A DNA stretch of 64,000 nt from the NCBI RefSeq assembly GCF_017357105.1, contig NZ_CP071596.1, forward strand, positions 3,472,001-3,536,000. The letters are read 5' to 3'. The stretch's first letter is position 1; each line of letters begins with the position of its first letter. The position numbers were made by a program, and so were the translations under genes. The notes under the pieces are model-generated. The model saw nothing but the letters and a program-made list of their open reading frames with translations. It searched no databases and had not been told where the DNA came from. This DNA comes from Natronosalvus caseinilyticus. Its GTDB lineage: Archaea; Halobacteriota; Halobacteria; Halobacteriales; Natrialbaceae. Shown in pieces: positions 41,924 through 59,570 of the stretch.

Positions 41924-41942
41924 ATGGGCGCTACAGGATTTG
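41924..41942. repeat. Distal attachment site (tRNA-Arg 3' fragment)
   Basis: Nineteen bases identical to 59472-59490, covering the acceptor stem, T-stem and part of the T-loop of tRNA-Arg plus two flanking bases. A further 14 bases of the same tRNA (ACCCGTGACAACTT) recur at 42018-42031, so the original fragment was probably longer and is now split. Confidence 0.8.
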
Positions 41943-41950
41943 GAACCACG

Positions 41951-41987: not shown

Positions 41988-42189
41988 ATAACTCGCGCTT
42001 CGCGCTGCTCAGCGCTCACCCGTGACAACTTCCCAGTTCCGGGGTGCTCGGCACTCCGTGCCTGCGCGCCCGGGCTCCTGACGCGGTGGGCCAAGCAGGC
42101 CCCCGACCCCACGTGGAAGCGCCAGTCGGCCACCGCGGCGTGGTTCGGCGGGGGTGGCTCGAGGCACCGTGGTCTTCCTCACAGAGACT

Positions 42190-43206
42190 ATGACCACGAC
42201 ACTCGACCCGATCGACCCAGACGAAGCGTACGACATGTACCTCACCGACCGCGAGCCCGACGTCACCACCAGCACGCTCTACGCCCACCGCTCACGACTC
42301 GGCCACTTCCTTCGGTGGTGTGACGAAACTGGTATCGAGACGATCGCCGACCTGACCGGTCGCGATCTCCACGCCTATCGGCTGTGGCGGCGTGACGACG
42401 GTGACCTCAACCGCGTGAGCGAGAAAACGCAGATGGATACCCTTCGGGTGTTCATCCGCTGGTGTGAACAGCTCGGCTTCGCGCCGACCGACCTGCACCT
42501 TGCCGTCCAGAGCCCGACGCTCGAACCGGAGGACAACGTCCGCACGCAGATGCTCGACGCCGAGCGCGCCGAGGCAATCCTCGAGTACCTCGAGCGCTAC
42601 GAGCACGCCTCCTTCGATCACGTTGTCCTTACCCTCTTCTGGCACTGTGGACTCCGTATCGGTGCCCTGCATACGCTCGACGTCGAGGACTACGATCCAA
42701 CGAGCCGCTCGCTCGAGGTTCATCACCGGCCCGAGAGCGAGACTCCCCTGAAGAACAAGGGCGGTGGTGAGCGCCATATCGCCCTCGCTGACGACACCTG
42801 TGCGATCCTCGACGACTGGCTGGCCGATCGTCGACCAGCGGTGACCGACGCCTTCGATCGTGAGCCGCTGTGCGCCTCGCCACACGGTCGCAGTCACAAG
42901 ACCAACCTTCGGAAGGTGGTATACATGTGGACGCGTCCCTGCGTCGTCACCGGAGACTGTCCCCATGGGCGGACGATCGACGACTGTGACGCCGCTGGCT
43001 CGACGAAACCCTACGCGTGTCCGTCATCAGTGTCGCCGCACGCGATCCGGCGTGGCGCGATCACCCACTGGCTGAAATCGGAGTGGCCCGATCACGCCGT
43101 GAGCGATCGGGCGAACGTCTCGCGAGAAGTGCTCGAGGTTCACTACGACCAGCGCTCGGAATCGGAGAAGATGGAACAGCGACGCCAGTATCTGGATACC
43201 ATCTAA
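42190..43206 (+). CDS. Tyrosine site-specific integrase
   Basis: 338 residues from ATG 42190. An N-terminal SAM-like core-binding domain (DEAYDMYLTDREP, STLYAHRSRLGHFLRWC) is followed by the catalytic domain: Arg156 in CGLRIGAL, Lys190 in LKNKGGG, His284/Arg287 in PHAIRRGAITHWL, and the nucleophile Tyr319 in VLEVHYDQ. A cysteine/histidine insert (CVVTGDCPHGRTIDDC, then ACP) between the catalytic boxes looks like a zinc-binding loop, as in many haloarchaeal integrases. The gene lies about 250 bases inside the distal attachment site and points into the element. Confidence 0.9.
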   Translation: MTTTLDPIDPDEAYDMYLTDREPDVTTSTLYAHRSRLGHFLRWCDETGIETIADLTGRDLHAYRLWRRDDGDLNRVSEKTQMDTLRVFIRWCEQLGFAPTDLHLAVQSPTLEPEDNVRTQMLDAERAEAILEYLERYEHASFDHVVLTLFWHCGLRIGALHTLDVEDYDPTSRSLEVHHRPESETPLKNKGGGERHIALADDTCAILDDWLADRRPAVTDAFDREPLCASPHGRSHKTNLRKVVYMWTRPCVVTGDCPHGRTIDDCDAAGSTKPYACPSSVSPHAIRRGAITHWLKSEWPDHAVSDRANVSREVLEVHYDQRSESEKMEQRRQYLDTI

Positions 43207-43214
43207 TCCCTTCC

Positions 43215-43232: not shown

Positions 43233-43440
43233 GATAGGTGATATGATTCGAGAGACGTGCTGCATACAGAGCGCGAATGTTGCACGGGATGAGGAAGGAC
43301 CAACGCGGAAGACCGAACGCTCAGTACAGGCGGGGTACTCCCTGTCCAGCCAAGACTACGCATCTCTCACAGGAGTACCTACAGCCCCTCTTTTAGTTAT
43401 CCAAATAACTATTTCCGGGCGGGTCTAAATAATTCAACAA

Positions 43441-44229: not shown

Positions 44230-44610
44230 CTCGCTTCGCGGAAGAAACGAAGAATCTCTCTTGAAGCCAGCAACTCCAATCAGTCTCTCGCAATAGTGTT
44301 GATCACTGGCCATAATTCAAAGCCAGATATAATTGGGTGACACAACCAGTAAGCAGATCTACGGAACAGCTGGTTCATTGGACTCAGTGTGAAACAAACG
44401 AAGCCATCGTGCTGTACTCATCCTCTGTATCTCGCACACCGATTCTGACAGCAGCTCGATAGTCCGTAGAGTCCCTGCGAGATACAAGGCGCGTATCTCA
44501 CACGAGCACCACGGTTGAAGGGTATAGTTCCCTCACACTCAGAAGGTGGGCCCCACTGCGAATCAGCGTCGGGGAAAGGTGTTAATGCCTGCCACGCCGA
44601 CGTTCGATAC
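44230..44610. other. Intergenic stretch before the AsnC regulator
   Basis: 381 bases. A minus-strand frame at 44418-44612 is open but has no similarity or sensible composition. No repeat of note. Probably regulatory or decayed DNA. Confidence 0.4.
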
Positions 44611-45132: not shown

Positions 45133-45358
45133 GCGGTGTTGATTTCCGTATTCCACAGTTTTTCAGCCGCATATCGTGTAATCAGCAACAGCCAATCCGG
45201 AAATACGCAATAAATTCTGGCGAATCTGTGTTATCTCGAATATGCACATCTATTGTTACAAAACGGTTATACCGCTACTCGCTCTATCGGCTACCAAAAA
45301 TGTAACCACCGGAGTCCGACGGCCCCTCACCCCTCACAGTGGACGCCTCACCAAAACA

Positions 45359-45649
45359 ATGAACGACAACACCTTCAACGCACTCGCACACGAACAGCGC
45401 CGAACACTCTTGCTTGACCTTCTCGAATCGAATCCGCAGGATGCAGGGATTGAATCACTCACAGGAGAATCAGTACTGACTGACGCCGAACAACGTTTGC
45501 AGACCGGGATGTATCACGTCCACTTGCCCAAACTCGAAGACTACGGCTACATCGAGTGGAACGAAGAGACAAATGAAATCATCAAGGGGCCACAGTTCGA
45601 TGAGATTCGGTCGTTGCTCAAATTTATCGCGTCCGAAGGTGTAGAGTGA
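45359..45649 (+). CDS. Small HTH regulator (ArsR-like/DUF7344 type)
   Basis: 96 residues from ATG 45359. The sequence FNALAHEQRRTLLLDLLESNP opens a winged-helix fold, followed by MYHVHLPKLEDYGYIEWNEE as recognition helix plus wing. This composition is common among the many haloarchaeal regulators of about 100 residues. No metal ligands are seen. Upstream DNA is A+T rich. Confidence 0.75.
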   Translation: MNDNTFNALAHEQRRTLLLDLLESNPQDAGIESLTGESVLTDAEQRLQTGMYHVHLPKLEDYGYIEWNEETNEIIKGPQFDEIRSLLKFIASEGVE

Positions 45650-45707
45650 CGACGAAGAGGCCGCCTTCGCCGCCACATTAAGCGTAGTCGCACAATCAGA
45701 CTTACAC

Positions 45708-45950
45708 ATGAGTCCGTCGTCACCCACTTCTTCAAACAATGTATTGAGCAATGCCGTAATTGAGGCTGTTGCCAAGGAAATGGATGTTCACCCCACTGAA
45801 CTGCCCGAGAAACTGCACGACGTAATCGACCCCGACTCATTAGATTCGCTATTCGCCAGCAGGAACCCGACAGGCGGAACTGTGACGTTCACTTACTGCG
45901 GCTACGAAGTCACCGTCACCGCAGACGGCGACGTGAGCCTTGAAGAATAA
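45708..45950 (+). CDS. HalOD1 output-domain protein
   Basis: 80 residues from ATG 45708. A helix (LSNAVIEAVAKEMDVHPTELPEKL), then IDPDSLDSLFAS, then the beta hairpin GTVTFTYCGYEVTVTADGDV, the layout of the haloarchaeal HalOD1 domain often found as an output module in signalling. It stands alone here. The next 40 codons in another frame (RYNVLAGKELDPHAPGAVVSR, ending near 46046) look like the tail of a decayed gene. Confidence 0.75.
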   Translation: MSPSSPTSSNNVLSNAVIEAVAKEMDVHPTELPEKLHDVIDPDSLDSLFASRNPTGGTVTFTYCGYEVTVTADGDVSLEE

Positions 45951-46294
45951 CGGTTCACTCCGGCGCTACAACGTCCTCGCAGGAAAGGAACTCGACCCAC
46001 ACGCCCCCGGTGCCGTCGTTTCTCGTATAGACGAAGATGAAAACTAAGCCACCGAGTTCTGCTGAGTACACCCCCTATATTCAGCAGGCGAATCCAATAA
46101 GATACTAAGGATTTCAACAGAGCTTCCCTTCCCTATCTTTCTCGACTCCTTTCTCACAACTCCACAGTGACTTCCCTATTCATGTTGTCGAAGAAGCAAC
46201 TCTTCACGACGAGAGAGCCATCTTCTCTATGAAATATTCCGATGGTAACAATTGTGTTTGGACTATGTGTAATGGTGCTGTAGTATGAGATTGC
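45951..46294. other. Intergenic stretch with IS-like end
   Basis: 344 bases. Contains a gene-tail-like short frame at its start, a hairpin (CTGCTGA 46059-46065 / TCAGCAG 46081-46087) and AAGGATTTCAACAGAGC at 46107-46123, the inverse of the sequence at 43215. No complete gene. Confidence 0.5.
46107..46123. repeat. IS-like terminal sequence (right arm)
   Basis: Inverse complement of 43215-43231 with one difference. With the adjacent hairpin at 46059-46087 it looks like the end of a haloarchaeal insertion sequence or MITE. The two arms enclose the lower-G+C genes at 43.4-46.0 kb. Confidence 0.55.
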
Positions 46295-46792
46295 ATGGCA
46301 CGAAAAACAGCAAGCGGTGAGATCGGGGAAGAATCGTTCGACACAGTACCCACGGGGCGCCGAATCGCGGTGATGAAACTTGTTCCAGCCGTCGTGCTGG
46401 GCGTGCTCATCGGTGGCCTCGTGGCCCTTTCGTTGTCGAATATCGGCGGTGCGGCGGCCGGGTTCGTCGTGGCTACGTTGCTGTCGGCATACTATCTCTA
46501 CCGAAAGCCCCTCCCGAGTGCTGTGTTCGGGACGGGACTGTATCTGACCGCCGGCCTACTGGTCTTGGCGCCGATCCTCTTCTACGTCCCGACGATCCTC
46601 GCCCCCGATAGCAGCTCTGGGGCGGAAGAGGCTGGTGCGTTCGTCGGCAGTATCCTCGGTCTGTTTCTCTGGGGGTTCGTCTTCTTCCTCATCGCCCTCG
46701 TGGTGTTCACGCTGGGCTACTTCAGTAACCGACGCGCTAAGAAGAAACTCAGTGCTCGAGCGAGCGCCTCACAGGAGAGCTATGATCCGTAG
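46295..46792 (+). CDS. Membrane protein, translationally coupled to DUF4352 protein
   Basis: 165 residues from ATG 46295. A soluble start (MARKTASGEIGEESF) is followed by about four hydrophobic helices (MKLVPAVVLGVLIGGLVAL, GGAAAGFVVATLLSAYYLY, FGTGLYLTAGLLVLAPILF, FVGSILGLFLWGFVFFLIAL) and a basic end (NRRAKKKLSARAS). Its stop overlaps the next start by 11 bases in another frame. Function unknown. Confidence 0.7.
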   Translation: MARKTASGEIGEESFDTVPTGRRIAVMKLVPAVVLGVLIGGLVALSLSNIGGAAAGFVVATLLSAYYLYRKPLPSAVFGTGLYLTAGLLVLAPILFYVPTILAPDSSSGAEEAGAFVGSILGLFLWGFVFFLIALVVFTLGYFSNRRAKKKLSARASASQESYDP

Positions 46793-47705
46793 AGTCTTCC
46801 TCGGCGTCCTCGGCTCGCTCGTCGCCACTGCGGGCACGAGCGCCTCAGCAGCCGCACAGGAGGACACGAGCGCGGTCGTCGGCGAGTTGATCGAAGGAGA
46901 CCCGTTACACCTCCTCGTCGAAGGAGCGCGGCTGACGGACTCGCTCGACGAGTTCACGGAGGCCGAGGCAGGGTCCGAGTTCCTCGTCGTCCGGATCGCC
47001 TACAAGAACACCAGCGACGAGTTCCATACGGTGAGCGGCCTGCTGAGCACACGCATTCGCGACGATGAGTCCTACACCTACGACCAGAGTTTCTACGGGA
47101 CGGCCGAGGCCCTCAATGACGGCCAGATCGCGCCGGGCGAGGTCGAACGCGGGGATCTCGTCTACGAGGTGCCCGAGGATGCGTCGGGATTCGTCCTCGA
47201 GTTCGACTTCGATATCGGTCTGTTCGGCGATCTCGAGCGGGCGGTGATCGATCTCGAAACCACGAGTGACGAGCCGGCGACGCTCGAGCAGGAGCTCGCG
47301 ATCGACGTCCACGGGGTCGGTGACACCGTCGAGCACGAGGGGACGGCCGTCACCGTCAACGAGACAACCACGGAGACACAGCTTGACGAGTTCACGGAGG
47401 CCGCAGCCGACCACGAGTACGTCATCGTCGACCTCACGGTCGCAAACGCCACAGGCGAGGAACAGCTCGTCTCGACGCTGTTGCAGATGCAACTCAAGGA
47501 TGGCGAGGGACTGAGTTACGACGAGGATCTGGGCGCGACGTCGTCCCTTGAGCGCGCCTTCGAGGAGGGGGCGCCGATCGCGGATGGAGACGAGCGCCGA
47601 GGCCAGCTCGCTTACGAGGCCGAGGCGGAGCGCGAGCCACTGTACTGGGTGTTCGAGTTCTCGCTGTTCGCCGAGGGGGACAAGACGTTCTGGCAACTCC
47701 GTTAA
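46782..47705 (+). CDS. Secreted protein with two DUF4352-like domains
   Basis: 307 residues from ATG 46782. Signal-type N-terminus MIRRVFLGVLGSLVATAGTSASAAAQ with a likely cleavage after the alanine run. Two tandem beta-sandwich repeats follow: LTDSLDEFTEAEAGSEFLVV with YKNTSDEFHTV, and QLDEFTEAAADHEYVIVD with VANATGEEQLV. The LDEFTEA-x-A word is repeated. DUF4352 domains are extracellular and often bind or stabilise surface proteins; the role here is unknown. Coupled to the upstream membrane protein. Confidence 0.75.
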   Translation: MIRRVFLGVLGSLVATAGTSASAAAQEDTSAVVGELIEGDPLHLLVEGARLTDSLDEFTEAEAGSEFLVVRIAYKNTSDEFHTVSGLLSTRIRDDESYTYDQSFYGTAEALNDGQIAPGEVERGDLVYEVPEDASGFVLEFDFDIGLFGDLERAVIDLETTSDEPATLEQELAIDVHGVGDTVEHEGTAVTVNETTTETQLDEFTEAAADHEYVIVDLTVANATGEEQLVSTLLQMQLKDGEGLSYDEDLGATSSLERAFEEGAPIADGDERRGQLAYEAEAEREPLYWVFEFSLFAEGDKTFWQLR

Positions 47706-48246
47706 TAGAATTGCCTTCGTATTTTCTTTCCACCATGTCGAGTAATGTATAGCGCTAATTGACACATCACGTGTAGTTTTCTTCTGTAGGTTACACCTGC
47801 GCGATCCACCTGCAAATCACATCAGAGAATGCGCCGCCCTCGGGGGGTTTAAAGAGGTTTAGCGAACGAGTTATACATTCCGAGCAATATACTCAAATAG
47901 AGAAATGTAGACTAAACTCTCGCTCGCGTGACATCTCATTGGTACGGGTCTCTCACGCGAGCTTGAAGTGATGAGTTCGAGGAACTCAGAGGAGTTCCCC
48001 ATGGTCAGTTAGCCCCGGCTCTACTTAGCCTTGCGGGCTCCTGCGACCAAACGGCGTCTCTGGGTTTCTCTTGACGGCAGTGACGCGCCGTAGAGATAGG
48101 TCATCGACACAGCTGGAGATGTACGCTCGGAAATTCACCGCGGTAGAACACCCCGCACCCTCGAACACGAACGGTAGCAAGTTCCTGCTTTCACGGCCGG
48201 AATTGTTGGATATTCAGGATAAACTGGTTTTCTGGAGGCGGTTCGC
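47706..48246. other. Intergenic region with two strong hairpins
   Basis: 541 bases. Hairpin one: CTCGCGTGA (47923-47931) with TCACGCGAG (47953-47961). Hairpin two: GGAACTC (47981-47987) with GAGTTCC (47992-47998), four-base loop. The arrangement reminds me of the 3' end of IS200/IS605-type elements or the RNA made there, but no transposase or tnpB frame is next to it. A 60-codon frame at 48071-48253 is open without known similarity. Confidence 0.45.
47923..47998. repeat. Tandem hairpins (possible IS200/IS605-type end)
   Basis: Two perfect stems of 9 and 7 bp in 76 bases, separated by GCTTGAAGTGATGAGTTCGA. Possible remnant transposon end, structured RNA or terminator for the DUF4352 operon. 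Confidence 0.4.
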
Positions 48247-49938
48247 GTGGTAACGAACGCGGACCGTAGCAGGAGGTCGCCCTCTAAGCCGGCTTACGCG
48301 GTCATAGGCTGCTCTGAGTGCTCACAGCTGTGGATTGTCTACCAGCTCCGGGAAAAAGACACCATCTTGTGTCCTCGATGCGAGAAGGAATTTCCTGCCC
48401 GAAAGCGTCGAATACTGTCCGAGCACGATCGATTCGAAGCCGCGCGTAAATCACGGACTCGAAGACTGGCCGAGCGAGCAAATGCGCCAGTGCCGGAGTT
48501 CAAACCTGTTGCTGACGAACTCCTCTTCGCGGAGGTTTTCGCAGAGGAAGTTGATGATCGGCCGTTCTACGCTGACGTGTTCGCTGAGGAGGTTGACCTC
48601 CAGATTCCGGAAGCAGATGCGTTTGAAGCGCTGGTTGATGATCGGCCGTTCTACGCTGACGCGTTCGCTGAGGCGGTTGATGATCAGCTGTCTTCCGTCA
48701 ATGAACACGACGTCGACGAGAGTTCCTCGCGCCCGTCCAAAAGAACTGGGCGAGTTCCGTATCTGGACCTCTCTGATGCAGAGGTGCCGTGGAAGGGCGA
48801 TCAACGAGCGATGAAGAAAACGCTACTGCTCAAAACCGCAGTACTGCACCCAGATCGGGCAGCTAAGGGGATCCCGTTTTCAGTACTGCTGGATGAGGTA
48901 TTCGGCGATGAATGGGAGACTGGTGATCGAAACTATCACCTGTTGCACGACTTCATCGCTCAATACCCGGAATATCTCGAAAAGTCGAAGCTCTCTGGCG
49001 ATTTCGTATGGGTCCGCCCGGCTGAGAAAGGGGTCACCTTGATACGTAGCATAGACGAGTTAGGAAACGGAGACGGCGGCGGGGTAGCCACGACAAGTCG
49101 GGATAGTGCAAGTAGCGCTCTCCCAAGGGAGCGAGTCGAGAGAGTGTTACGGTCAACCCGTCGGATTCAGACAGATCCTCAACGGGCGCTGTTGCTGAGA
49201 CAACTGGCTGAACACGGGGAAACGATGATCGATGAAAAAGGGGAGCCGAAGACGATCGAACCTCACGGAAAGCCAGTGGAGGCAGTATGTAGATTTACCG
49301 ATTCGGGAGAGGCAAACCGGACGCGTGCAGTGTATGAGTGCGCCGCTGACGTATTAGAAGAATTCTACGACTACGCAACGTGGGTAACGTATACGACCCC
49401 GCGAGAGTGTATCTCGTCAGTGTATGATTCAGTACGAGTTATAAGAGAGACGCTAACCCGTCTCCATCGGGATCGTTTCACCTATGATGCCCAGTCGCGC
49501 CCCCGACCGGGGTACACCCCAGACTATGTGTGCGTGCTCGAGCCACACCGTGATCTGGTGGCTCATCTCCACGTCGTCTATGGAGGTGAACAACAAGTGA
49601 TGAAGCCTGCAGACCTACAGGCTGACTGGCATGAGTTGCTGAATGCACCGGCTGGGAAACCTGCTCAAGTGGCTGTTCGATCGCTCTCCTTAGAACCGTC
49701 AGGGTGGTGGGTAACTGATTCTGAGGATCATGAGACAGACATCCGTGACTACCACCGGTCGGAGCTCCGAAATCTCGCACGGTTAGCGTCGATGACCCCG
49801 CAGGAGATTTATGGACTTGCGGATGACCTCGAGAACGGAACTCGAGTATCGGAAGGCCGTGACCTCGCTGGTTTGGCCTTACCCTTTGCTACAGATACGC
49901 GATTCACGTCAGCATCGAAAACGCTCACACAGGGATGA
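48247..49938 (+). CDS. Zinc-ribbon (DUF5817-like) protein with Rep-like HUH region
   Basis: 563 residues from GTG 48247. Residues 17-80 form a zinc ribbon (CSEC at 22-25, CPRC at 42-45) followed by a basic helix, like DUF5817 proteins of haloarchaeal plasmids. Residues about 92-146 contain two near-identical copies of VDDRPFYAD-x-FAE-x-VD. Residues about 185-265 look like a winged-helix unit (KTLLLKTAVLHPDRA, GIPFSVLLDEVFG). The C-terminal half resembles rolling-circle Rep proteins: WVTYTTP at 379-385 (motif I), YVCVLEPHRDLVAHLHVVYGG (HUH pair His440/His442, motif II), then DLQADWHELLNAPAGKPAQVAVRSL. A YxxKY motif III is not obvious; Tyr502 or Tyr522 are candidates. It may start replication of the excised element; this is inference. 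Confidence 0.6.
   Translation: MVTNADRSRRSPSKPAYAVIGCSECSQLWIVYQLREKDTILCPRCEKEFPARKRRILSEHDRFEAARKSRTRRLAERANAPVPEFKPVADELLFAEVFAEEVDDRPFYADVFAEEVDLQIPEADAFEALVDDRPFYADAFAEAVDDQLSSVNEHDVDESSSRPSKRTGRVPYLDLSDAEVPWKGDQRAMKKTLLLKTAVLHPDRAAKGIPFSVLLDEVFGDEWETGDRNYHLLHDFIAQYPEYLEKSKLSGDFVWVRPAEKGVTLIRSIDELGNGDGGGVATTSRDSASSALPRERVERVLRSTRRIQTDPQRALLLRQLAEHGETMIDEKGEPKTIEPHGKPVEAVCRFTDSGEANRTRAVYECAADVLEEFYDYATWVTYTTPRECISSVYDSVRVIRETLTRLHRDRFTYDAQSRPRPGYTPDYVCVLEPHRDLVAHLHVVYGGEQQVMKPADLQADWHELLNAPAGKPAQVAVRSLSLEPSGWWVTDSEDHETDIRDYHRSELRNLARLASMTPQEIYGLADDLENGTRVSEGRDLAGLALPFATDTRFTSASKTLTQG
48550..48681 (+). repeat. 84-base-period direct repeat within the Rep-like gene
   Basis: A 48-base unit starting GTTGATGATCGGCCGTTCTA occurs at 48550-48597 and again at 48634-48681 with few differences, in the same frame (28 codons apart). 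The near-identity at DNA level implies a recent duplication. Confidence 0.75.
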
Positions 49939-50434
49939 TTTACGATGGCACGGTTTGGTACCGTCTCCTGTTAGTTACTAACGCGAAGAGCAAAGAATAG
50001 CGTAGAACGCGTTGGCTGGAGAACGTCAGTAGCAAGTAGTCCGGCTGACTGAACAAATCGACCCCCTACGCAAAACGACGGGGGTGGTATCATGAACACG
50101 GGTGGGCTGGCCGCCGGACAAGTCTATCTCTCTTCCCAACTGGAGTATATGAACCTTTCAGGGACGAAATCTCGTTCCTTACAACCAGTAGTTCGTGAAC
50201 TATCGGGGATGACTACGTCATCCCCGGCAATCGAATCATGAAGGACGTATAGGTTGTATATCACCCATCTGCGCTCAGGTACGGACTCCGATTTCGCGAA
50301 TCGGCCGGTTCCTGTTTCTCCCCGCAAGTGAATTGGATGTCCAACATTATTTCTTTCACTGATCGAAGGGTACGATACGCCCAGCTGCATCTGCGCCCTC
50401 TCACGCCCGTCAGCGTGTTCTTGCTCTGGGCTGG
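49939..50434. other. Intergenic region with hairpins, candidate origin
   Basis: 496 bases downstream of the Rep-like gene. Contains ACCCCC (50061-50066)/GGGGGT (50080-50085) around a 13-base A-rich loop and a stronger hairpin at 50204-50226. A minus-strand frame (50124-50438) is open but unlike any protein. Rolling-circle origins are often hairpins close to rep, so an origin is possible. Confidence 0.4.
50204..50226. repeat. Perfect 10-bp hairpin
   Basis: CGGGGATGAC (50204-50213), loop TAC, GTCATCCCCG (50217-50226). Either a bidirectional terminator between the convergent Rep-like and HTH genes or a nick-site hairpin. Confidence 0.6.
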
Positions 50435-50755
50435 TCATCCATCATTCTCGGCTGCAGACGCGCTCTCGGCGTCTGTGGGGCCCTCCTCGCCGTCACTGGT
50501 GGCTGACTGCGCGATGAGCGTCTCGAGATCGACGCCGTGATCGTCCGGGATCCACCAGACGCGCCCCCGAGCGCCGACCTGCTTCGAGGCGAGAACCCCC
50601 CGATCGGCGAGCTCCTCAAGCTTCTTGTGTGCCGTCCGACGCGCGATCCCGACTGCCTCGGCGACCTCGCTGGAGGTCAGCGGCTCCGCGGCATCCTCGC
50701 GATCGACGAATGCCTCGAGGCACGCGTCGGCCTCAACTCTGTACGGTCGTGTCAT
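50435..50755 (-). CDS. Winged-HTH transcriptional regulator
   Basis: 106 residues from ATG 50755. An N-terminal helix (PYRVEADACLEAFVDRED) leads to the HTH: EPLTSSEVAEAVGIARRTAHKKLEELADRGVLASKQVG, then a wing (GRVWWIPD). The C-terminal 25 residues are acidic and disordered. Comparable small repressors sit at the control regions of haloarchaeal plasmids and proviruses. It faces the SWIM gene across a region with repeated operator-like sites, so it is likely to control that switch. Confidence 0.78.
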   Translation of the reverse strand: MTRPYRVEADACLEAFVDREDAAEPLTSSEVAEAVGIARRTAHKKLEELADRGVLASKQVGARGRVWWIPDDHGVDLETLIAQSATSDGEEGPTDAESASAAENDG

Positions 50756-50794
50756 CGATGATTTGGACTACACTGCCGAGTGCCTTAGATCGTT

Positions 50795-50884
50795 CCGTTG
50801 TGGGCAATGCCGTTGTAGGTTTATCACCAATAACGACAGTCTCAGGTGTCGTGAAAGGGCTTTATAGTCTATGCCGTTGTAGGT
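50795..50884. promoter_or_regulatory. Repeated operator-like sites in the HTH/SWIM control region
   Basis: ATGCCGTTGTAGGT occurs exactly at 50807-50820 and 50871-50884, and a partial copy CCGTTGTGGG lies at 50795-50804. TTTATAG at 50861-50867 is a TATA element for the rightward gene, so the third site falls between TATA and the likely transcription start, a repressing position. The other sites lie near the leftward promoter of the HTH gene. Confidence 0.6.
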
Positions 50885-50974
50885 ATAGATGAGGACAGAC
50901 GGCCGCCTCGGCGTGTTTCGGAACGCGCGGGTGGTAGGACACCCGCGGCCGGTCCTCAATAGGGAGCAAGGACC

Positions 50975-51544
50975 ATGTCAACCTACGCAACCGACCGCAA
51001 AAACAGTACCGCCGGCGACCGACTTGACCGCCGCGACGTGCGTGCGCTCACCGAATGCATGACGGTGATGGAACACGCCCCCGAGGTGGCGGGCGCTGAC
51101 GGGCTGTTCGTCGTCGTCACCCAGAGCGGCAAGACGTACACGGTCGATGTGCTCGACGAGCCCCGCTGTACGTGCCCGGACGCCCAGTACAATCTTCCGA
51201 CCGCCGATGGTCGGCGGACGTGCAAGCACGCCGCCCGCGTCACCTACGAGACGGGAATGCGGCCAATCCCGGCGTGGGTGAACCGCGACGCGCTCGAGAG
51301 CCAGTTGCTTGAGGCCACCCACGTCGACGGCGAGCCCATCTTCGCCGCTGGTCACGTGGCTGGCGACGGTGACGATGTCGAGGCCGGCAGTGACGGGCGT
51401 GGCACCCCACGGCGTGCGATCGCCGACGGCGGCCGTGAGCGCCCGGCCGACTGCTGTTGTGTCGGCGAGCTTCCGTGCTTCATGTGCTGGCGGGCTGGCT
51501 TCCGAACGCCGGCGGACGAGAGCACGAGGGAAGCCGATGAGTAG
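50975..51544 (+). CDS. SWIM zinc-finger protein
   Basis: 189 residues from ATG 50975. The SWIM motif CxCx(n)CxH is C65-x-C67 (CTCPDAQYN) and C83-x-H85 (CKH). A second cysteine-rich patch near the end (CCCVGELPCFMCW) could bind another metal. SWIM domains bind DNA or proteins; in haloarchaea they are frequent on plasmids and proviruses, sometimes coupled to recombination. The next small gene starts eight bases before its stop. Confidence 0.75.
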   Translation: MSTYATDRKNSTAGDRLDRRDVRALTECMTVMEHAPEVAGADGLFVVVTQSGKTYTVDVLDEPRCTCPDAQYNLPTADGRRTCKHAARVTYETGMRPIPAWVNRDALESQLLEATHVDGEPIFAAGHVAGDGDDVEAGSDGRGTPRRAIADGGRERPADCCCVGELPCFMCWRAGFRTPADESTREADE

Positions 51545-51755
51545 TGCATCAGCCACGACTCAGGCAACGTGCGCCGACTGCGGGCGGCTGGTCGATTCGG
51601 GCGTGCTCGAGATCGTCTCGACGGGGTTCGGCCCCGGCAACAAGTATACGCTCGACTTTTGCTCGATCACGTGTCGAGCGCGCTGGCGGGGTGACGACGT
51701 CGTCCTCGCAACGACCCGACAAACGACGCTTTCGGCGAATGGTTGGATGGGTTAG
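51537..51755 (+). CDS. Small zinc-finger protein coupled to SWIM gene
   Basis: 72 residues from ATG 51537, overlapping the SWIM gene's end by eight bases. CADCG and FCSITC supply two CxxC-type pairs (the second with three-residue spacing, C-x3-C) around VSTGFGPGNKYTLD. A short zinc-binding adaptor by appearance; function unknown. Confidence 0.6.
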   Translation: MSSASATTQATCADCGRLVDSGVLEIVSTGFGPGNKYTLDFCSITCRARWRGDDVVLATTRQTTLSANGWMG

Positions 51756-51789
51756 AGGTAAGTCACTCTACCTTGTATATTCGGATGAA

Positions 51790-52677
51790 ATGGTAGTAGT
51801 GTTACTTGAATATTTATTGGCACTCCTGCTTATCCCTGCCTTCATACTTCATATTCTTCACTTCGAATGGTTCAAAAAGTACGTCTCCATCGTTTCTCGC
51901 TCTCTGTTCTCTGTTTTACAGATCTTTGTTGGGGTGATGTTTGGGGTGGTGTTGGTGATTCCGAAGTTAGTAGTTGGATCACTGAAAGCAGTCCTAATCG
52001 CTATCCTTTCCGTCGTTTTAGCAGCAATCTATCTGGTCACATTCGTGGTTCCATATGTTGGTGGGAAAGGGAATGTCTGGAGAGAGTCGCTGACGAACGG
52101 AGTGGTAGCGTCATACCTCGCCGTTCAGGTTCGTACTATGCGAGACATGATGGTTCGGATTGTAGCAGAAGAGGATGAACGACATCTCAGCTTCGACGAG
52201 CCAGAAAGGTACCGGACAGAGCTGGATCGAGTAAAGCAGGATGCGACAAACAGACTTGAATCGGGGGAGACACGATTGTCGATACTTCTTGGAGCCATAC
52301 TAATAGCAGCTCAGTTGGCAGGAGTAAAGGTGCTACAGGCCTCAATATATGGAATTCCTATGGATGTGGTAATCGAAGGCTGGCTATTAGTTATCGCGGT
52401 GTCGATAATTTACCGGTCTTCTGTGCTGGAATTCTTGGCATACAGTCCAGATGATGACTTTGAGTCTCTCGACAAGATGGATGCCGCATTAGGCTATCAA
52501 AAAGTTGTATCGCTTGTTGGGTTCGTTCAGGGATTGATGTTTTTGTTGGTGCTCATGGCGGCAGTTTCAAAAGTGAAATACAGTATAATCGAGGACGCGT
52601 TGAGGGCGATGTATACCGATGAACCTTGGGTGTCTTTCACGTGGGAAAGGCTGACTAACTCATCAAACGAACGATAG
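51790..52677 (+). CDS. Multi-pass membrane protein of unknown function
   Basis: 295 residues from ATG 51790; ATG 51739 in the same frame is an alternative. Lower G+C than the neighbours. Hydrophobic segments: VVVLLEYLLALLLIPAFILHI, the LFSVLQIFVGVMFGVVLVIP/LKAVLIAILSVVLAAIYLVTF pair, then a soluble charged region (EEDERHLSFDEPERYRTELDRVKQDATNRLESGETR), a further pair (LSILLGAILIAAQLAGVKVLQ, VIEGWLLVIAVSIIY) and a last helix (VSLVGFVQGLMFLLVLMA). No family is recognised. It ends seven bases from the convergent metallopeptidase gene of the restriction operon. A role in defence is speculation based on position. Confidence 0.6.
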   Translation: MVVVLLEYLLALLLIPAFILHILHFEWFKKYVSIVSRSLFSVLQIFVGVMFGVVLVIPKLVVGSLKAVLIAILSVVLAAIYLVTFVVPYVGGKGNVWRESLTNGVVASYLAVQVRTMRDMMVRIVAEEDERHLSFDEPERYRTELDRVKQDATNRLESGETRLSILLGAILIAAQLAGVKVLQASIYGIPMDVVIEGWLLVIAVSIIYRSSVLEFLAYSPDDDFESLDKMDAALGYQKVVSLVGFVQGLMFLLVLMAAVSKVKYSIIEDALRAMYTDEPWVSFTWERLTNSSNER

Positions 52678-52684
52678 CGAGGTC

Positions 52685-53413
52685 TCAAACCACGAGCGAA
52701 TTGCCGTTCACACGAAGCCACTCCCGCCGGTCCTTATAGTCGGGGGTCAACGTCCCAACGGTATTCCAAAACGCGTCTGAGTGGTCGTCGTGGACATTGT
52801 GCGCCAGCTCGTGAACGATCACATAATCTTGGATGCGAACAGGCGCGAGAATCAGTCGCCAGTTCAACCGGATCGTGCCGTCGAGGTACTCGCCCCAGCT
52901 CCCCTCGAGCTCGCCGACCTCGATCGGGACCGATGAGAGGCCGAGCTTCGCCTCGTAGCGCTCACTCCGCTCGGGGAGATCGGCATCGGCTCGTTGGAGG
53001 TACCAGTCGACGATGGCTTGACGCTTGCGGCGGATGCTGACGTGATCGCTCGGCGCGTCGAACCGATGAGTGCGGAGGGTGAACTCGTTGCCATCGAACG
53101 AGAGCTGTGGCTCGGGGACGTCGGCTTCGATTACGTCGAGGCGGTACTGGCGGCCTCGGTAGGGGAGTTTCTCGCCGCTCAGATACTCACGGGGGTAAGG
53201 TGGCTCCGACTGCTCTTTGAGGTGATAGAGCTTCTCGAGGAGCCACTCACGGCGGCTCTCGAGGACGTCCTCGACCTCGTCGATGGTCATCGTCATCGGC
53301 GCCCGAACGGTTAGCTCGAGGGAGTGGTCAAGCGAGAGGTCAAGCGTTTCGCGATCCGCGACCCAGTCGATCTCGTAGGGGATGACGGTCTGGCCGATAT
53401 GAAACGTTCTCAT
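52685..53413 (-). CDS. YgjP/DUF45-like zinc metallopeptidase of the hsd operon
   Basis: 242 residues from ATG 53413, whose first bases overlap the hsdR stop (ATGA). The gluzincin motif HELAH is at 201-205 with a third His in HDDHSDAF. The N-terminal half is beta-rich with a DVLESRREWLLEKL helix, as in the DUF45 (YgjP-like, M48-related) family often located in type I restriction operons. The exact role in restriction is not established; coupling suggests stoichiometric or regulatory linkage to HsdR. Confidence 0.82.
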   Translation of the reverse strand: MRTFHIGQTVIPYEIDWVADRETLDLSLDHSLELTVRAPMTMTIDEVEDVLESRREWLLEKLYHLKEQSEPPYPREYLSGEKLPYRGRQYRLDVIEADVPEPQLSFDGNEFTLRTHRFDAPSDHVSIRRKRQAIVDWYLQRADADLPERSERYEAKLGLSSVPIEVGELEGSWGEYLDGTIRLNWRLILAPVRIQDYVIVHELAHNVHDDHSDAFWNTVGTLTPDYKDRREWLRVNGNSLVV

Positions 53414-56382
53414 TCGTAGTGGGCACGAGCCAGCTGGATGACGCGATTCGTCAGCTCGTCGCGCTCGGCAGACGTTAAGTCGACCTCGGTCTTGTAGAGT
53501 GCGATCTTCACTCGCTTGCGGATCTTCTGGAGAACGCCCACACGCTCTTTCCACTCGACGAACGTCACTGACTCCTCGACAGCGGCCACGAGCCGCCCCG
53601 TGAGCTCGAGCACGACCTCCTCGTCGAGCTCGGCTTTCTGCTCGCCGAGGACGTCCTCGAGGGCGTGGTAGAACGAGAGTTCGGTCGTCCCGTCGAGGCC
53701 CTTGCGGCGGGCGCGCTGGTGGCGTGACTGCATCTCATTGAGCACCTCTCGAAGCTCTTCGATGATCTCGCGATCGGAGAGGCGCTGTTGTTTGTACTTC
53801 TCGATGAGCTCCTCGACGCGTTCCTGTAGCGAGCCATAGTGGACGGGGTCCTCGTCGAAGCGTACGTTTAGCTCGTGTTTGATGGCGTGTTGCATCTCAC
53901 TCGCTCGAGCTTCGTCGCTCTCTAACGTATCAAGTTTCGCGTCAAACTCGCTCTTGTCCATCACCGAGACGGGCTCGTCGTTCAATACCTCGATTCCCGA
54001 GGAGCGGATGTGGTCCTGAATCAACTCCCGGACCTGCTCGCCGGTCCCCTCGAGGTTCATCTCCTCGTCACGGTAGCGTTGCTTTGTTTGAGCGTAGACG
54101 TCGCTCAGGCGCTCGAGATCCTCTTTGTACGGGTTCGCCATCGGATCCGGGAGGACGATATCCATGAGCGTCGAGAAGCGCTTGAACGCGTTGTTGAACT
54201 CGATGCGGGTGTCCTCGGGCTCGAGCGTCTGGACGCACGCCTCAACGTCGTCGAGATCATCGAAGAACATGATGGCCTTTCGGTGGGCGGCCTCGAGCTC
54301 AGCTCCTTTATCCTCGAGGGGGACCAGTGCGCGCTCGACCTCGTCGGCGCTGAACATCGCGAGCGCTTCGCGGAGATCGTTCGACACGCCGTAGTAGTCG
54401 ATGATCAGCCCGTAGTTCTTGTCGGTGAACGGCCGGTTCACCCGGGCGATCGCCTGTAGGAGGGTGTGCTCTTTCAGTGGCTTGTCAATATACATGACCT
54501 GTGCGACAGGGGCGTCGAAGCCGGTCAACAGCATGTCACAGACGATGAGGAGCTCGACCTCGCCATCGGGATCGACGAACGACTCCTTGTACTCGGCGAG
54601 CTCCGAATCGCTTGGTGCCCAGCGTTTCACGGCCTCGGGGTCGTTGTGGCCGTGCGAGATTACGACGCGTGACTCTGGGCCGTTCAACCGATCGAGTTTC
54701 TCTTTGTAGGTGATGGCCGCGCGCTTGCTCGTGGTGACGACCATTCCCTTGAACGTGTCCGCGATTTCGTTCTCGTAGTGGTCGATGATATCGAGGGCGA
54801 CCTGCTCGATGCGTGACTCGGCTTCGGCGAGATCCTGTGTACGAGCGTAGCGCTTCTTGATCTCCGCTTTCTCGGCGTCGGTGTAGTCGGCGAAAATCCG
54901 ATCGAACATGCGATCGAGCGTCTCCCCCTCGAGGTGCATGTCGGCGAGGCGGCCCTGATAGAGGATCTCGACGGTCGTGTCGTCGGCGAGCGACTGGTCG
55001 ATCGTGTACGTATCAATGTAGTTGCCGAACGTTCGCCGGGTGTCGCGATCGTCCTTCTCGATCGGCGTCCCCGTGAAGCCGATGTAGAACGCGTTCGGGA
55101 GCGCCGTCCGCATGTTATTCGCGAGGTGCTTGTACTGAGTCCGATGGGCCTCGTCGACCATCACGTAAATGTCGTCGTCCGTCGAGAGCTCGGGGAAGTC
55201 ACCCTCCTCGTGCTCCTCGAGCTGGAACTTCTGGATGAGGGTGGTGATCGTCCCACCCGCGTTACTCGAGAGTTTATCGCGGAGGTCGTCGATCCCTTCG
55301 GCGCGCTCAGGGTTCGGGAAGCCACAGCGTTCGAACGTTGCGTGGATCTGTCGATCCAGTGCCTGTCGATCGGTGACGAGGACGAGCGTGGGATCGGCCT
55401 TCTCGCGGCGAAGCTTGAGGCCGAGGAAGAGCATCGTGAGCGACTTCCCTGACCCTTGAGTGTGCCAGACGACGCCACCCGGTGCTTCGCGTTGGTGACG
55501 CTTCTCGATCCGCTCGATGGCTTTGTGTACTGCCCGGTACTGCTGGTAGCGAGCAACCAGTTTCACGCGCTTGTTCTGCTTGTTCTCGAAGACAGTGAAA
55601 TGGCGGAGCTGATCGAGCAAGCGCTCGGGCTCGAACAGCGCGTAAAGCATCCGGTACTGGTCGGGAACGTAGCCGTCGAGATCGAAGCGATCGGCGAGGT
55701 ACTCGTCGTCGACGGGGTAGGGATCGCGCCACGGCTTGTACTGGCCTTTCGGCGTGCCGTAGGTGCCCATCACCGCGCCCTCGTACCACGTCGCGACTGA
55801 GAACTGGTTGTATCGAAAAAGTCGCTCAGCGCCTTCTGAGCCGGTTTCAGTCCGTTCGTTCTGGTAGCGCTGGAGTTGCTCGAGTGCCTCGCTTCGTGGT
55901 TCTTTGATTGTCGGAGCCTTGCATTCGATCACGCCGAGCGGGATGCCGTTGACGAAGAGTACGATGTCCGGCTTGATCGTCTCGATCGGTCCCTCGACGC
56001 GGAATTGGTTGAGCGCGAAGAAGTCGTTATTCTCGGGGTGCTCGTAGTCGATGTACTTGACCGTCTGGTGTTTCTTGCCGTGGCCGCGATCCTGTTTGAC
56101 CGTTGTATGTCGCACGAGCAGCTCGTGAATCTGCTCGTTCTCGTGCATTGTGCTCGTCCCCGCAGTCTGCTGAATCTCGCGGACGACCTTGTTCAGGTTG
56201 TTCTCGTCAAGCCAAGGGTTCAAGCGTTCGACGGCATTACGAAGGCAGGGCTCGAGTACAACAGAGGATAGCGTTTCACGGGATTCATTCCATCCCGTTT
56301 CCTGCTGATCAACGACTTTCCAACCGAGTTGCGCAAGGGTCTTGAGGGCGGGGCGTTCGGTCTCGGCATACTCGTTGGACAT
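53410..56382 (-). CDS. hsdR: Type I restriction enzyme, R subunit
   Basis: 990 residues from ATG 56382. The N-terminal nuclease has Asp139 and Glu153-x-Lys155 in PDIVLFVNGIPLGVIECKAP. The SF2 translocase motor has Walker A TQGSGKSLTM (about 308-317), the DEAH box in VMVDEAHRTQYK, and motif VI near LLQAIARVNRP. The C-terminal helical domain begins near residue 800 and links to the methylase. It cleaves DNA at a distance after ATP-driven translocation when HsdS sites are unmethylated. It starts one base after the hsdS stop. Confidence 0.93.
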   Translation of the reverse strand: MSNEYAETERPALKTLAQLGWKVVDQQETGWNESRETLSSVVLEPCLRNAVERLNPWLDENNLNKVVREIQQTAGTSTMHENEQIHELLVRHTTVKQDRGHGKKHQTVKYIDYEHPENNDFFALNQFRVEGPIETIKPDIVLFVNGIPLGVIECKAPTIKEPRSEALEQLQRYQNERTETGSEGAERLFRYNQFSVATWYEGAVMGTYGTPKGQYKPWRDPYPVDDEYLADRFDLDGYVPDQYRMLYALFEPERLLDQLRHFTVFENKQNKRVKLVARYQQYRAVHKAIERIEKRHQREAPGGVVWHTQGSGKSLTMLFLGLKLRREKADPTLVLVTDRQALDRQIHATFERCGFPNPERAEGIDDLRDKLSSNAGGTITTLIQKFQLEEHEEGDFPELSTDDDIYVMVDEAHRTQYKHLANNMRTALPNAFYIGFTGTPIEKDDRDTRRTFGNYIDTYTIDQSLADDTTVEILYQGRLADMHLEGETLDRMFDRIFADYTDAEKAEIKKRYARTQDLAEAESRIEQVALDIIDHYENEIADTFKGMVVTTSKRAAITYKEKLDRLNGPESRVVISHGHNDPEAVKRWAPSDSELAEYKESFVDPDGEVELLIVCDMLLTGFDAPVAQVMYIDKPLKEHTLLQAIARVNRPFTDKNYGLIIDYYGVSNDLREALAMFSADEVERALVPLEDKGAELEAAHRKAIMFFDDLDDVEACVQTLEPEDTRIEFNNAFKRFSTLMDIVLPDPMANPYKEDLERLSDVYAQTKQRYRDEEMNLEGTGEQVRELIQDHIRSSGIEVLNDEPVSVMDKSEFDAKLDTLESDEARASEMQHAIKHELNVRFDEDPVHYGSLQERVEELIEKYKQQRLSDREIIEELREVLNEMQSRHQRARRKGLDGTTELSFYHALEDVLGEQKAELDEEVVLELTGRLVAAVEESVTFVEWKERVGVLQKIRKRVKIALYKTEVDLTSAERDELTNRVIQLARAHYE

Positions 56383-56383
56383 A

Positions 56384-57583
56384 TCAGTTATTTATGTTAA
56401 CGCGCACTTTTCCAGTGAGGAGGTCCTGCATGAGACCGCGTTTAAGTTCTTGAAGTATTGTGCGTCTTTTGTATTCTTGTTCAATCTTAGCTGTCACCTG
56501 ATTTAGAACATCTGCAATTTCGTCTTGTTCTGATTTTGGTGGTTTGGGGACCTTGAGCGAGTTTAATACTTTTTGATTCAACTTTGGTTGCGCTGTTCCA
56601 GTTGCGTATGGCTCATAGCTTAATACTTCAAAATAGTTCAATAAATAAACAAGGGACATATCACTGTTTGGTTTCAGAACATGTGCGTGGTTATTAACCC
56701 ATGATTTTCCACTTACTTTAAATGAAATGGGCTTGTTTCTTGATAATAGGTTTTCTCCATCTTCTGCTAGTAGTAAGAGTTCGTCGTTAAATAACCAGTC
56801 ATCGACAGTATCAATTTGCCCCGATGCACCGTAATAAGGAATGTCTCCCTCCATCTCCTCACGGTCGGTTTTCTTTACAGGAATTCGTTGGCTATCCAAA
56901 TTGTCAACACATTCACTAACGGTGCATACATCCCAACTACTTGGTATTTTAAAATCAAAGGGCCCCACTCTAAATGGTTGGTACTCTTTGTGTGTTAACC
57001 CATTAATGATTAGATCATTTCTAAGACCGCGTTTCAATTCTTCTGTTTTCTCAATAATCTCGTCTGTTTGCTGGATCTCCTGATCAACTACTGAGAGTAT
57101 ATTAGTGATTTGCTGCTGTTCTGAGAGCGGCGGAGCAGGCATTTGATAATTTTCTAAACGGTTTCTGTCCAAACTTGGAATCGATGTTTGTTCAAGTTCA
57201 TCTGATAGAGAATGTAATGACATATGGTGATAAACAAACCCTAAATCTATTTTATCATGTTTAAATTCCGATAAATAAAAAGCCGTATCTGACGGCCAAC
57301 ATGGTTCACGAAGTAGATAAGCTTCTCCTGCTGAACCTTTCCGCCCGATTACAATCGTGTCATCATCGATCAGGGATTTGTTTACATAATCGTATAATCC
57401 ACTTGAACCCACTGCTGGGATTTCTCCGCCAGTATCAGGGAGTGATTTTCCATATTTTACTTCCGATATTTCTGATATTTTTGTCACACACCATTCTTTA
57501 GGTATTTGGATAGATTTTGGCCCGAGTTGTGCAAATTTGTACCCTTCTTGGAGAGATTTTTCACTGAATTGTCCGCTGGTCAT
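56384..57583 (-). CDS. hsdS: Type I restriction enzyme, S (specificity) subunit
   Basis: 399 residues from ATG 57583, overlapping the hsdM stop (ATGA). Two half-molecules: target recognition domain 1 from about residue 25, first conserved helix with [16 protein letters not shown], target recognition domain 2 ([17 protein letters not shown]), and second conserved helix with [17 protein letters not shown]. The two TRDs decide the bipartite DNA sequence. The gene is visibly A+T rich relative to hsdM and hsdR, a usual sign of separate exchange of S genes. The recognised site cannot be read off. Confidence 0.93.
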
Positions 57584-59142
57584 CGGTATTGTAAGTCCTC
57601 CATATACTGCTGCAGTTTTTCATCATTCTTCTTCCGCTCTTCCGCTAATTCATCTAACTCTCGAAGCTTCTCGCTTACGTCGATTGGTTCCTCAGGTTCA
57701 GTGGTATCAATATACCGTGAGACACTAAGATTCCAGTCGTTCTCCTCAATCTCCTTTAAGTTGACTAATCGGCTGTGATGATCCTCCTTTCGACCTGAGA
57801 GGTATGTCTCGGCGAGATGATCGACGCCATCCTGTAGAAGTTCGTTCTGATTCGAAAGTTCTTCGTATACCTGTACTCCAGACTCTCGAAGCGTTTGATC
57901 TTCGGCGTAGATGAAGAGGACCTTTTCTTCGCGCTCCTTAGGCTTGTCCTTGTTGAGAATGAGTATACACCCCGGCGAGGACGTATTGTAGAACAAATTC
58001 TCTGGAAGCGCAATCACAGCTTCAACGATGTCGGCCTCGAGTATTGGTTTCCGAATTTTCTTCTCAGATCGTGAGCGGAACAGTACGCCATTGTCCATTA
58101 CGACGCCCGCCTTCCCTGTCTCGTTCAGGCTCGAGATCATCAACTGGATCCACGCCCAGTCACCGCGGTTCGACGGTGGCAATCCATGTTGGAAGCGGCC
58201 GTAGGGCTCGTTCTCTTCGACCCACTCTTTGCTCCATTCCTTCTGATTCCACATAGGATTCGCAATCACTTTGTCGAAGAGCTCGAGCTCGTCGTGTTCG
58301 GTGACGTGCTTGGGTTCGGTGATCGTGTCGCCCTTCGCGATCTTCGCGTCCTTCACCTCGTGAAGGAGCATGTTCATCTGGCCGATTGCCCACGTGTCGA
58401 GGTTGCGCTCTTGTCCGTAGAGGGCGAGATCGTCCATACTGCCGCCGTTGTCGGCGACGTGCTGGGCTGAGTAGATGAGCATCCCACCAGAGCCACAGCA
58501 CGGATCGTAGACGCGATCACCCTCTTCGGGGTTCACACACTCGACGATCAGCTGGACGACCTCACGCGGCGTATAGAACTCCCCACCTTTCTTCCCGGCG
58601 TCGTCGGCGAACTGCCGGATCAGGTACTCGTAGGCACGCCCGAAAATGTCGGGATCTTCAAGGTCCTCGTTGCGATACCGATATGTCCCGAAGTGGCGGA
58701 CGAGCTTGTCGAGCACCTGATCGGGCAGGCGGTCTTTGTCATTGAAGTCGATACTGCTGAGGACGCGATCGTCGATCTCGTCGTTCTCGTCTTCGATCGC
58801 CTCGAGGGCCTTGTTCAACGTCGCGCCGATGTCGGTCGACTGTGCGCTGATGTGTTCCCAGCGAGCGCGTTCGGGCACCCAGAACTCCTCGTGGAGGTCG
58901 CGATCGTCGCGAACCATCCCCTCGGGGATGGCGTGCTCGTCGGCGATCTCAAGGGTTTCCTCGTCGAAGCGGTCGTTGACCCGCTTGAGGAAGAGCATGC
59001 CGAAGATGTAGTTCTTGTAGTCAGAGGAGTCAATGCTACCGCGTAGAATATCAGCGGCCTCCCAGAGATGCGTACGCAGATCGGGGAGGGAGAGCGTGTG
59101 ATCTTCGTCGACGCTCTCGAGCGTCTGCTGTTCTGGATCCAT
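57580..59142 (-). CDS. hsdM: Type I restriction enzyme, M (methyltransferase) subunit
   Basis: 520 residues from ATG 59142. An N-terminal helical domain ([18 protein letters not shown]) precedes the N6-adenine methyltransferase: SAM motif I DPCCGSGG at 213-220 and catalytic NPMW at 295-298 (family NPPF/NPPY). It methylates adenine at the HsdS site and, with HsdS and HsdR, forms the restriction complex. Gene order hsdM-hsdS-hsdR-metallopeptidase is one operon on the minus strand. Confidence 0.93.
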
Positions 59143-59473
59143 ACCCCTATCCAGTCATTGATGCTATGTGTAACTTTCCGTTCCGAGAGAGAATATCTGG
59201 GGATCGCTCTTGATGGTGTTCGACCTCCGAGCTCGTGGCTTCTTTGGGCCTTCATGCGCGGGCGCGTGCTGATCAATCAGTATCAGTATCGTCGCGACCC
59301 CGATGTATGTAGCCCGTGATTTATGTCCCTGCGCGTGGGTGTAACTCTCGAGGAATTCGCACGACAGCCTCGACCCCCGTGCCAGATCGTCATGAACTCT
59401 CGAGCCGGAATCGACCGATCGTTTATACGGCCTCGCCGCTTTCGGTCAACTTCCAATCGGTTAAATTGAGTAT
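59143..59473. other. Intergenic region between hsdM and tRNA-Arg
   Basis: 331 bases. Holds the hsdM promoter (a TTACAC element about 30 bases before ATG 59142 on the minus strand) and ends with the proximal attachment site at 59472-59490. No gene or strong repeat seen. Confidence 0.45.
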
Positions 59474-59547
59474 GGGCGCTACAGGATTTGAACCCGTGAC
59501 AACTTGGTCCGAAGCCAAGCACTCTGTCCAGACTGAGCTAAGCGCCC
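59474..59547 (-). tRNA. tRNA-Arg (anticodon UCG)
   Basis: Folds as a full cloverleaf on the minus strand: 7-bp acceptor GGGCGCT/AGCGCCC, D-stem GCTC/GAGT, anticodon stem CTTGG/CCAAG with loop CTTCGGA (anticodon TCG, codon CGA), T-stem ACGGG/CCTGT with TTCAAAT loop. No intron; the 3' CCA is not encoded. Its 3' half served as the attachment site for the adjacent element. Confidence 0.92.
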
Positions 59548-59570
59548 ACACCACCTGCTTTTCGTCGACC

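What the first reader, a model, noticed from the sequence alone, without database searches (positions are those of the whole stretch)
48247..49938. Zinc-ribbon protein with rolling-circle-Rep HUH motifs
Motif I-like WVTYTTP and motif II HLHVVYGG occur in the right order and spacing, and the segment after them (DLQADWHELL and AVRSL) matches Rep-style continuation. They are preceded by a DUF5817-like zinc ribbon and a winged-helix-like region. The usual YxxKY motif III is missing, so the catalytic tyrosine may be unusual or lost.
Basis: partly seen in the sequence, partly recalled or inferred. Interest (0 to 1): 0.65.

Follow-up and report, generated by a model that had tools for sequence, protein, structure and literature searches.

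The report
Zinc-ribbon HUH Rep of integrated plasmid
The gene most likely encodes the rolling-circle replication starter of a small plasmid-like element inserted in a haloarchaeal chromosome; it belongs to a known viral and plasmid enzyme family but carries an extra zinc-binding front end also found on an unrelated class of haloarchaeal replication starters.

Summary
ORF 48247-49938 (+, 563 aa) has a DUF5817 zinc ribbon, an acidic repeat linker, a winged helix and an HUH endonuclease domain. A profile built from pTP2, HRPV-1 ORF1 and similar Reps, leaving out this protein and its two nearest relatives, scores it 156 bits (E 9e-45) over residues 177-562. The gene sits in a 17.5-kb element in tRNA-Arg(TCG), with attL at 41924-41947, an integrase at 42154-43206 and a type I restriction-modification cargo. 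A relative in the same genus has a sister element at the same tRNA, in which exactly the rep cassette (about 47713-50203) is replaced by an unrelated gene. The ribbon and linker best match the N-terminus of a RepH-like plasmid protein. I file it as a divergent pTP2-like/alphapleolipovirus-type HUH Rep of an integrative plasmid. It is a new variant of a known kind through the ribbon fusion and Lys-less motif III. Nicking activity is inferred, not shown.

The parts
48247..49938 (+). rep gene, 563 aa HUH replication initiator with N-terminal DUF5817 zinc ribbon
   Evidence: GGAGG at 48234-48238
48295..48471 (+). DUF5817 zinc ribbon, residues 17-75, Cys22/25/42/45
   Evidence: Pfam PF19134 E 2.8e-15; closest to N-terminus of a Natrinema thermotolerans plasmid RepH-like protein
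48529..48680 (+). tandem 42-nt repeats encoding the acidic 'VDDRPFYAD-FAE-' linker
   Evidence: the repeat finder D1; same kind of repeats in RepH-like L053 and in Rep L091
48808..49020 (+). winged-helix region, residues about 188-258
   Evidence: family profile covers 177-562; model helices 188-239 and strands 244-258; MarR/SSV1 F-93/RosR-like PDB matches
49303..49890 (+). HUH endonuclease domain and following helices, residues 353-548
49381..49401 (+). motif I WVTYTTP (379-385), aligned to LTLTTDP of the family
49564..49587 (+). motif II HLHVVYGG (440-447), His440 and His442
   Evidence: invariant in 25 of 25
49750..49752 (+). Tyr502, motif III tyrosine (YHRS; Lys position 505 is Ser)
   Evidence: Tyr invariant in 25 of 25; Lys present in 20 of 25
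47713..50203 (.). rep cassette: the stretch replaced by an unrelated gene in the sister element L082 of the same genus
   Evidence: blastn blocks end at about 47712 and restart at 50204
47922..47962 (.). 10-bp perfect inverted repeat (GCTCGCGTGA/TCACGCGAGC, 21-nt loop) upstream of rep; weak candidate origin hairpin
   Evidence: z -2.3; roughly 0.1 such repeats expected by chance (own estimate)
42154..43206 (+). tyrosine-recombinase integrase of the element
   Evidence: PF00589 E 2.9e-9; phrog_1 integrase E 8e-28
41924..41947 (+). attL: 24-nt copy (22/24) of the 3' end of tRNA-Arg
   Evidence: homology with sister element L082 starts exactly here
59472..59495 (+). attR: 3' end of tRNA-Arg(TCG) (tRNA 59472-59548, - strand)
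53410..59142 (-). type I restriction-modification cargo (hsdR 53410-56382, hsdS 56384-57583, hsdM 57580-59142)

Best explanation
This is the replication-initiation protein of a 17.5-kb integrative plasmid-like element inserted in tRNA-Arg(TCG). After the integrase excises and circularises the element, the winged helix (and probably the zinc ribbon) would bind the origin. His440/His442 would hold a divalent metal, with Glu432 nearby, and Tyr502 would nick one strand, stay covalently attached to the 5' end, and start rolling-circle replication. Shown here: the domain make-up, membership of the pTP2-like/HRPV-1-ORF1 HUH Rep family, conservation of the catalytic residues, the element boundaries, and exchange of the rep cassette in a sister element. 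Inferred: metal binding, nicking at Tyr502, the location of the origin, the role of the ribbon, and that the element still excises and replicates.
For: Family profile without the query or near relatives: 156 bits, E 9e-45, residues 177-562. R349, T383, E432, H440, H442, W461 and Y502 identical in 25 of 25 members, including HRPV-1 ORF1, HRPV-2 ORF1, Halfgib1 rep and pTP2. Top viral structural match HRPV-1 ORF1, E 4.7e-15, with microvirus GpA/A* and Rep proteins lower in the list. Weak PDB matches repeatedly name HUH enzymes: Helitron, wheat dwarf virus Rep, parvovirus NS1, AAV Rep, pMV158 RepB. Att sites, integrase and tRNA. In G250 the same tRNA has no related element, and in G277 it has a sister element that starts exactly at attL and swaps the rep cassette. 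The relative L057 is a roughly 5-kb tRNA-to-tRNA stretch with rep, a few small genes and an integrase. The literature places alphapleolipovirus and pTP2-like Reps in one HUH cluster (PMC10599561; PMC6668415).
Against: Motif III lacks the Lys found in 20 of 25 members. The PDB structural matches are individually not significant (best E above 0.02). No close orthologue (best 38-40% identity) was found to test selection. One of the two nearest relatives (L005/L059) is frame-broken, so genes of this branch can decay. No origin was identified with confidence, and no data show excision or single-stranded intermediates.
Confidence: 0.86

Rival explanations
1. The HUH domain has lost or weakened catalysis and the protein now works as a DNA-binding regulator or a decaying remnant; loss of the motif III Lys and the added ribbon are signs of this.
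For: Lys505 replaced by Ser, and by an acidic residue in four relatives; a near relative is frame-broken.
Against: All other catalytic positions are invariant, the reading frame is intact and it has a Shine-Dalgarno sequence. Lys-less members occur in several lineages, all keeping Tyr and both His. In the unrelated Rep-Arvir initiator of SNJ2 only the tyrosine of the motif III region was essential (PMC13107129).
Confidence: 0.1
2. It is a relaxase or an HUH transposase rather than a replication initiator.
For: These enzymes share the HUH core; Helitron and REP-associated transposase appear among the weak PDB matches.
Against: The nearest characterised kin are replication genes of small viruses and a 2-kb plasmid. 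The element is bounded by tRNA-derived att sites with its own integrase, the gene is single copy in the genome, and none of the element proteins scanned matched a conjugation family.
Confidence: 0.04

Closest known systems
Alphapleolipovirus RCR endonuclease (HRPV-1 ORF1, HRPV-2 ORF1, Halfgib1 rep) and pTP2-like plasmid Reps
   Same: winged-helix region (absent from the short pTP2 open frame), HUH core, invariant catalytic residues, motif order
   Different: adds a DUF5817 ribbon and acidic repeat linker, lacks the motif III Lys, has GG in place of FG or FD after the HxH strand, and sits in an element without recognised capsid genes that carries a type I R-M system
RepH-type haloarchaeal initiators (ChaoS9 RepH, Natrinema plasmid RepH-like protein)
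   Same: N-terminal DUF5817 ribbon and repeat linker (40% identity over about 150 residues to the Natrinema plasmid protein)
   Different: the roughly 800-residue RepH body is absent here, and RepH proteins do not match the HUH family profile
Pfam PF23343 REP_ORF2-G2P
   Same: same HUH region; HRPV-1 ORF1 just passes its cut-off
   Different: the query scores 15.1 bits against a cut-off of 27.8
Rep-Arvir (DUF7845) of SNJ2
   Same: archaeal initiator joined to a wHTH domain, integrative context, atypical motif III
   Different: non-HUH TBP-like fold according to the paper; no DUF7845 match here

Membership tests
pTP2-like / alphapleolipovirus HUH Rep | significant sequence similarity over the catalytic domain | tested here: met
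   E 9e-45, residues 177-562
pTP2-like / alphapleolipovirus HUH Rep | motif II HxH (HUH metal ligands) | tested here: met
   His440/His442, invariant in 25 of 25
pTP2-like / alphapleolipovirus HUH Rep | motif III tyrosine | tested here: met
   Tyr502
pTP2-like / alphapleolipovirus HUH Rep | motif III Lys (YxxK), present in most members but not universal in this set, so not treated as defining | tested here: not met
   Ser505; Lys in 20 of 25; also absent in L003, L009, L039, L091
pTP2-like / alphapleolipovirus HUH Rep | HUH fold | tested here: met
   model topology, domain pLDDT 78 and pTM 0.78; HRPV-1 ORF1 best match E 4.7e-15; PDB matches alone not significant
pTP2-like / alphapleolipovirus HUH Rep | Tyr502 close to His440/His442 in space | not testable with these tools
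   no coordinates are returned
pTP2-like / alphapleolipovirus HUH Rep | nicks an origin and produces ssDNA intermediates | not testable with these tools
   needs bench work
Pfam REP_ORF2-G2P (PF23343) | score above the gathering cut-off | tested here: not met
   15.1 against 27.8 bits
RepH | N-terminal DUF5817 ribbon (seen in the RepH-like proteins examined) | tested here: met
RepH | roughly 800-residue RepH body | tested here: not met
   protein too short; RepH proteins not hit by the HUH profile
Pleolipovirus provirus | VP3/VP4 spike and ATPase gene block next to rep | tested here: inconclusive
   neighbouring genes are DUF4352, HTH, SWIM, membrane and R-M proteins with no VP or spike family match; no direct search with VP3/VP4 was run

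The most novel reading that the evidence does not exclude
The DUF5817 ribbon plus repeat linker is a portable targeting module that has moved between two unrelated classes of haloarchaeal replication initiators (RepH and HUH Rep), probably captured from a nearly universal chromosomal DUF5817 protein, and it goes with a switch to Lys-less motif III catalysis: 3 of 3 ribbon-bearing Reps lack the Lys, against 2 of 22 others (these are not independent lineages).
Probability: 0.35. Interest if true: 0.6.

Novelty: new variant of a known kind. Interest (0 to 1): 0.42.

Why it matters
It turns an unannotated protein into a testable plasmid initiator and shows that pTP2-like Reps occur in integrative elements that carry restriction systems and no recognised capsid genes. 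The DUF5817 ribbon links two otherwise unrelated initiator classes to a chromosomal protein family matched in 383 of 391 haloarchaeal genomes sampled, so finding the ribbon's partner could reveal how haloarchaeal replicons engage the host replication machinery.

Tried and rejected
Single-protein scans of genome contigs and viral contigs found no relatives, and alignment A1 was too diverse to search with. RepH as a homologue of the HUH part was rejected. The hairpin at 50204-50226 as a Rep-specific origin was rejected: it is kept, with a compensating stem change, in the sister element that lacks this rep. A zinc ribbon hidden upstream of the nearest relative L057 was looked for and is not there. 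PDB structure search on its own gave nothing significant. No paper in the library mentions DUF5817.

Full report
OBSERVATION. The ORF at 48247-49938 (+) is intact, 563 aa, with a GTG start and GGAGG 8 nt upstream. Pfam finds DUF5817 at residues 17-75 (E 2.8e-15) and only a sub-threshold hint of REP_ORF2-G2P at 405-461 (E 0.03). PHROG 12863 gives E 1.7e-5; HRPV-1 ORF1 matches the same PHROG at E 1e-176.

FAMILY. The C-terminal 231 residues have homologues in a small minority of haloarchaeal genomes: 15 of 391 listed at E <= 0.01, the weakest of them doubtful, while DUF5817 itself occurs almost everywhere (383 of 391 genomes match the full protein, mostly through the ribbon). Through the relative L006 the family connects to HRPV-1 ORF1, HRPV-2/6 ORF1, Halfgib1 rep and Thermococcus prieurii plasmid pTP2. 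A profile made from these and other members, without the query, L003 and L005, scores the query 155.9 bits, E 9.3e-45 for 100,000 sequences, covering residues 177-562; none of 2000 shuffled queries and no RepH protein was reported. In a 25-sequence alignment R349, T383, E432, H440, H442, W461 and Y502 are identical in every member. The motif III Lys is present in 20 of 25 and absent in the query (YHRS), L003 (YFGE), L009 (YLED), L039 (YLKE) and L091 (YLSE). In the tree the query groups with L003 and L005 (100/99), apart from the ribbon-bearing pair L039/L091 (100/99); a single origin of the fusion is not ruled out.

STRUCTURE. The full-length AlphaFold2 model has mean pLDDT 62, with 80-86 in most of the HUH core. 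The domain model reaches pLDDT 78 and pTM 0.78. Strand and helix order is that of HUH enzymes, with Tyr502 on the helix after the fourth and fifth strands. The best viral match is HRPV-1 ORF1 (E 4.7e-15), with microvirus GpA, A* and Rep proteins lower in the list. PDB matches are weak, but HUH enzymes recur among them, and the winged-helix part matches SSV1 F-93 and RosR. The Tyr-His distance could not be measured.

ZINC RIBBON. Residues 1-170 match best (82 bits, 40% identity over 149 residues, including the 'VDDRPFYADAF' linker) the N-terminus of a RepH-like protein on a Natrinema thermotolerans plasmid, ahead of chromosomal DUF5817 proteins (about 62 bits). That RepH-like reading frame starts upstream of the annotated start. 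DUF5817 is also at the N-terminus of ChaoS9 RepH, of a Halocatena plasmid protein and of the HUH Rep L039, and by eye of L091, whose linker repeats 'SDRPLLSDLYAAQV'. So the same front end sits on two unrelated initiator bodies. What the ribbon binds is unknown.

ELEMENT. tRNA-Arg(TCG) lies at 59472-59548 (-), and a 22/24 copy of its 3' end lies at 41924-41947. Next to it is an integrase at 42154-43206. The 17.5 kb between holds rep, small regulators and a type I R-M operon. In the same genus, G250 has the same tRNA without a related element, and G277 has a sister element at the same tRNA. Homology between the two elements begins exactly at 41924, covers the integrase (96%) and other stretches, and breaks at about 47712, just after the stop codon of the upstream gene. 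It resumes at 50204. In the sister element the rep cassette is replaced by a 395-aa protein (phrog_29021) with homologues on small haloarchaeal plasmids, one of them phage-like. Rep and its flanks therefore behave as one exchangeable replicon module. The relative L057 (Halapricum hydrolyticum) is a stretch of about 5 kb between tRNA-Thr and tRNA-Leu with rep and an integrase, and L060 rep also starts next to a tRNA.

MECHANISM. By homology with HUH initiators: binding at the origin, metal held by His440/His442, nicking by Tyr502, rolling-circle synthesis by host enzymes. The missing Lys is not decisive, since it is absent in several lineages that keep all other residues, and in the unrelated SNJ2 initiator only the tyrosine of that region was essential (PMC13107129). 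A 10-bp inverted repeat at 47922-47962 inside the cassette is a weak origin candidate. The stronger hairpin at 50204-50226 is shared with the sister element lacking this rep and is better read as a terminator or other element-level site.

KNOWN VERSUS NEW. Exchange of pTP2-like and pGRB1-like Reps among archaeal plasmids and pleolipoviruses is published (PMC6668415; PMC10599561). I found no paper naming DUF5817, and the searches made here returned none describing its sharing between RepH and HUH Reps; the library held is limited. The verdict is a new variant of a known kind.

Noticed in passing
41924-59495: A 17.5-kb integrated element in tRNA-Arg(TCG); the same tRNA in genome G277 holds a sister element with a different restriction cargo (a 1002-aa methylase-nuclease-like protein in place of the type I R-M operon).
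   Followed up: partly
50204-50226: Perfect 10-bp hairpin with a 3-nt loop (z -3.9), conserved with a compensating stem change in sister element L082, exactly at the right edge of the swapped rep cassette.
   Followed up: partly
43216-43250 and 46089-46123: 35-nt inverted repeat (GCTCTGTTGAAA ends, IS/MITE-like). In L082 the same arms lie about 600 bp apart instead of about 2.9 kb, suggesting a cargo insertion or exchange between them.
   Followed up: partly
L082:8320-9507: 395-aa protein (phrog_29021) occupying the rep position; homologues on several haloarchaeal plasmids, most of 17-50 kb; a candidate replication protein of unknown type.
   Followed up: partly
L053:5007-8054: The Natrinema thermotolerans plasmid RepH-like protein is annotated about 200 nt too short; the frame extends upstream to include the DUF5817 ribbon.
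   Followed up: partly
L049:791-1549: The pTP2 Rep reading frame is not among the genes listed for the plasmid record (the PLSDB gene table is incomplete).
   Followed up: no
L091 (587-aa ORF) and L039:520-2187: Two further DUF5817-HUH Rep fusions in the same family of haloarchaea, with similar DRP-type repeat linkers.
   Followed up: partly
52685-53554: YgjP-like metallopeptidase gene directly after hsdR in the type I R-M operon.
   Followed up: no
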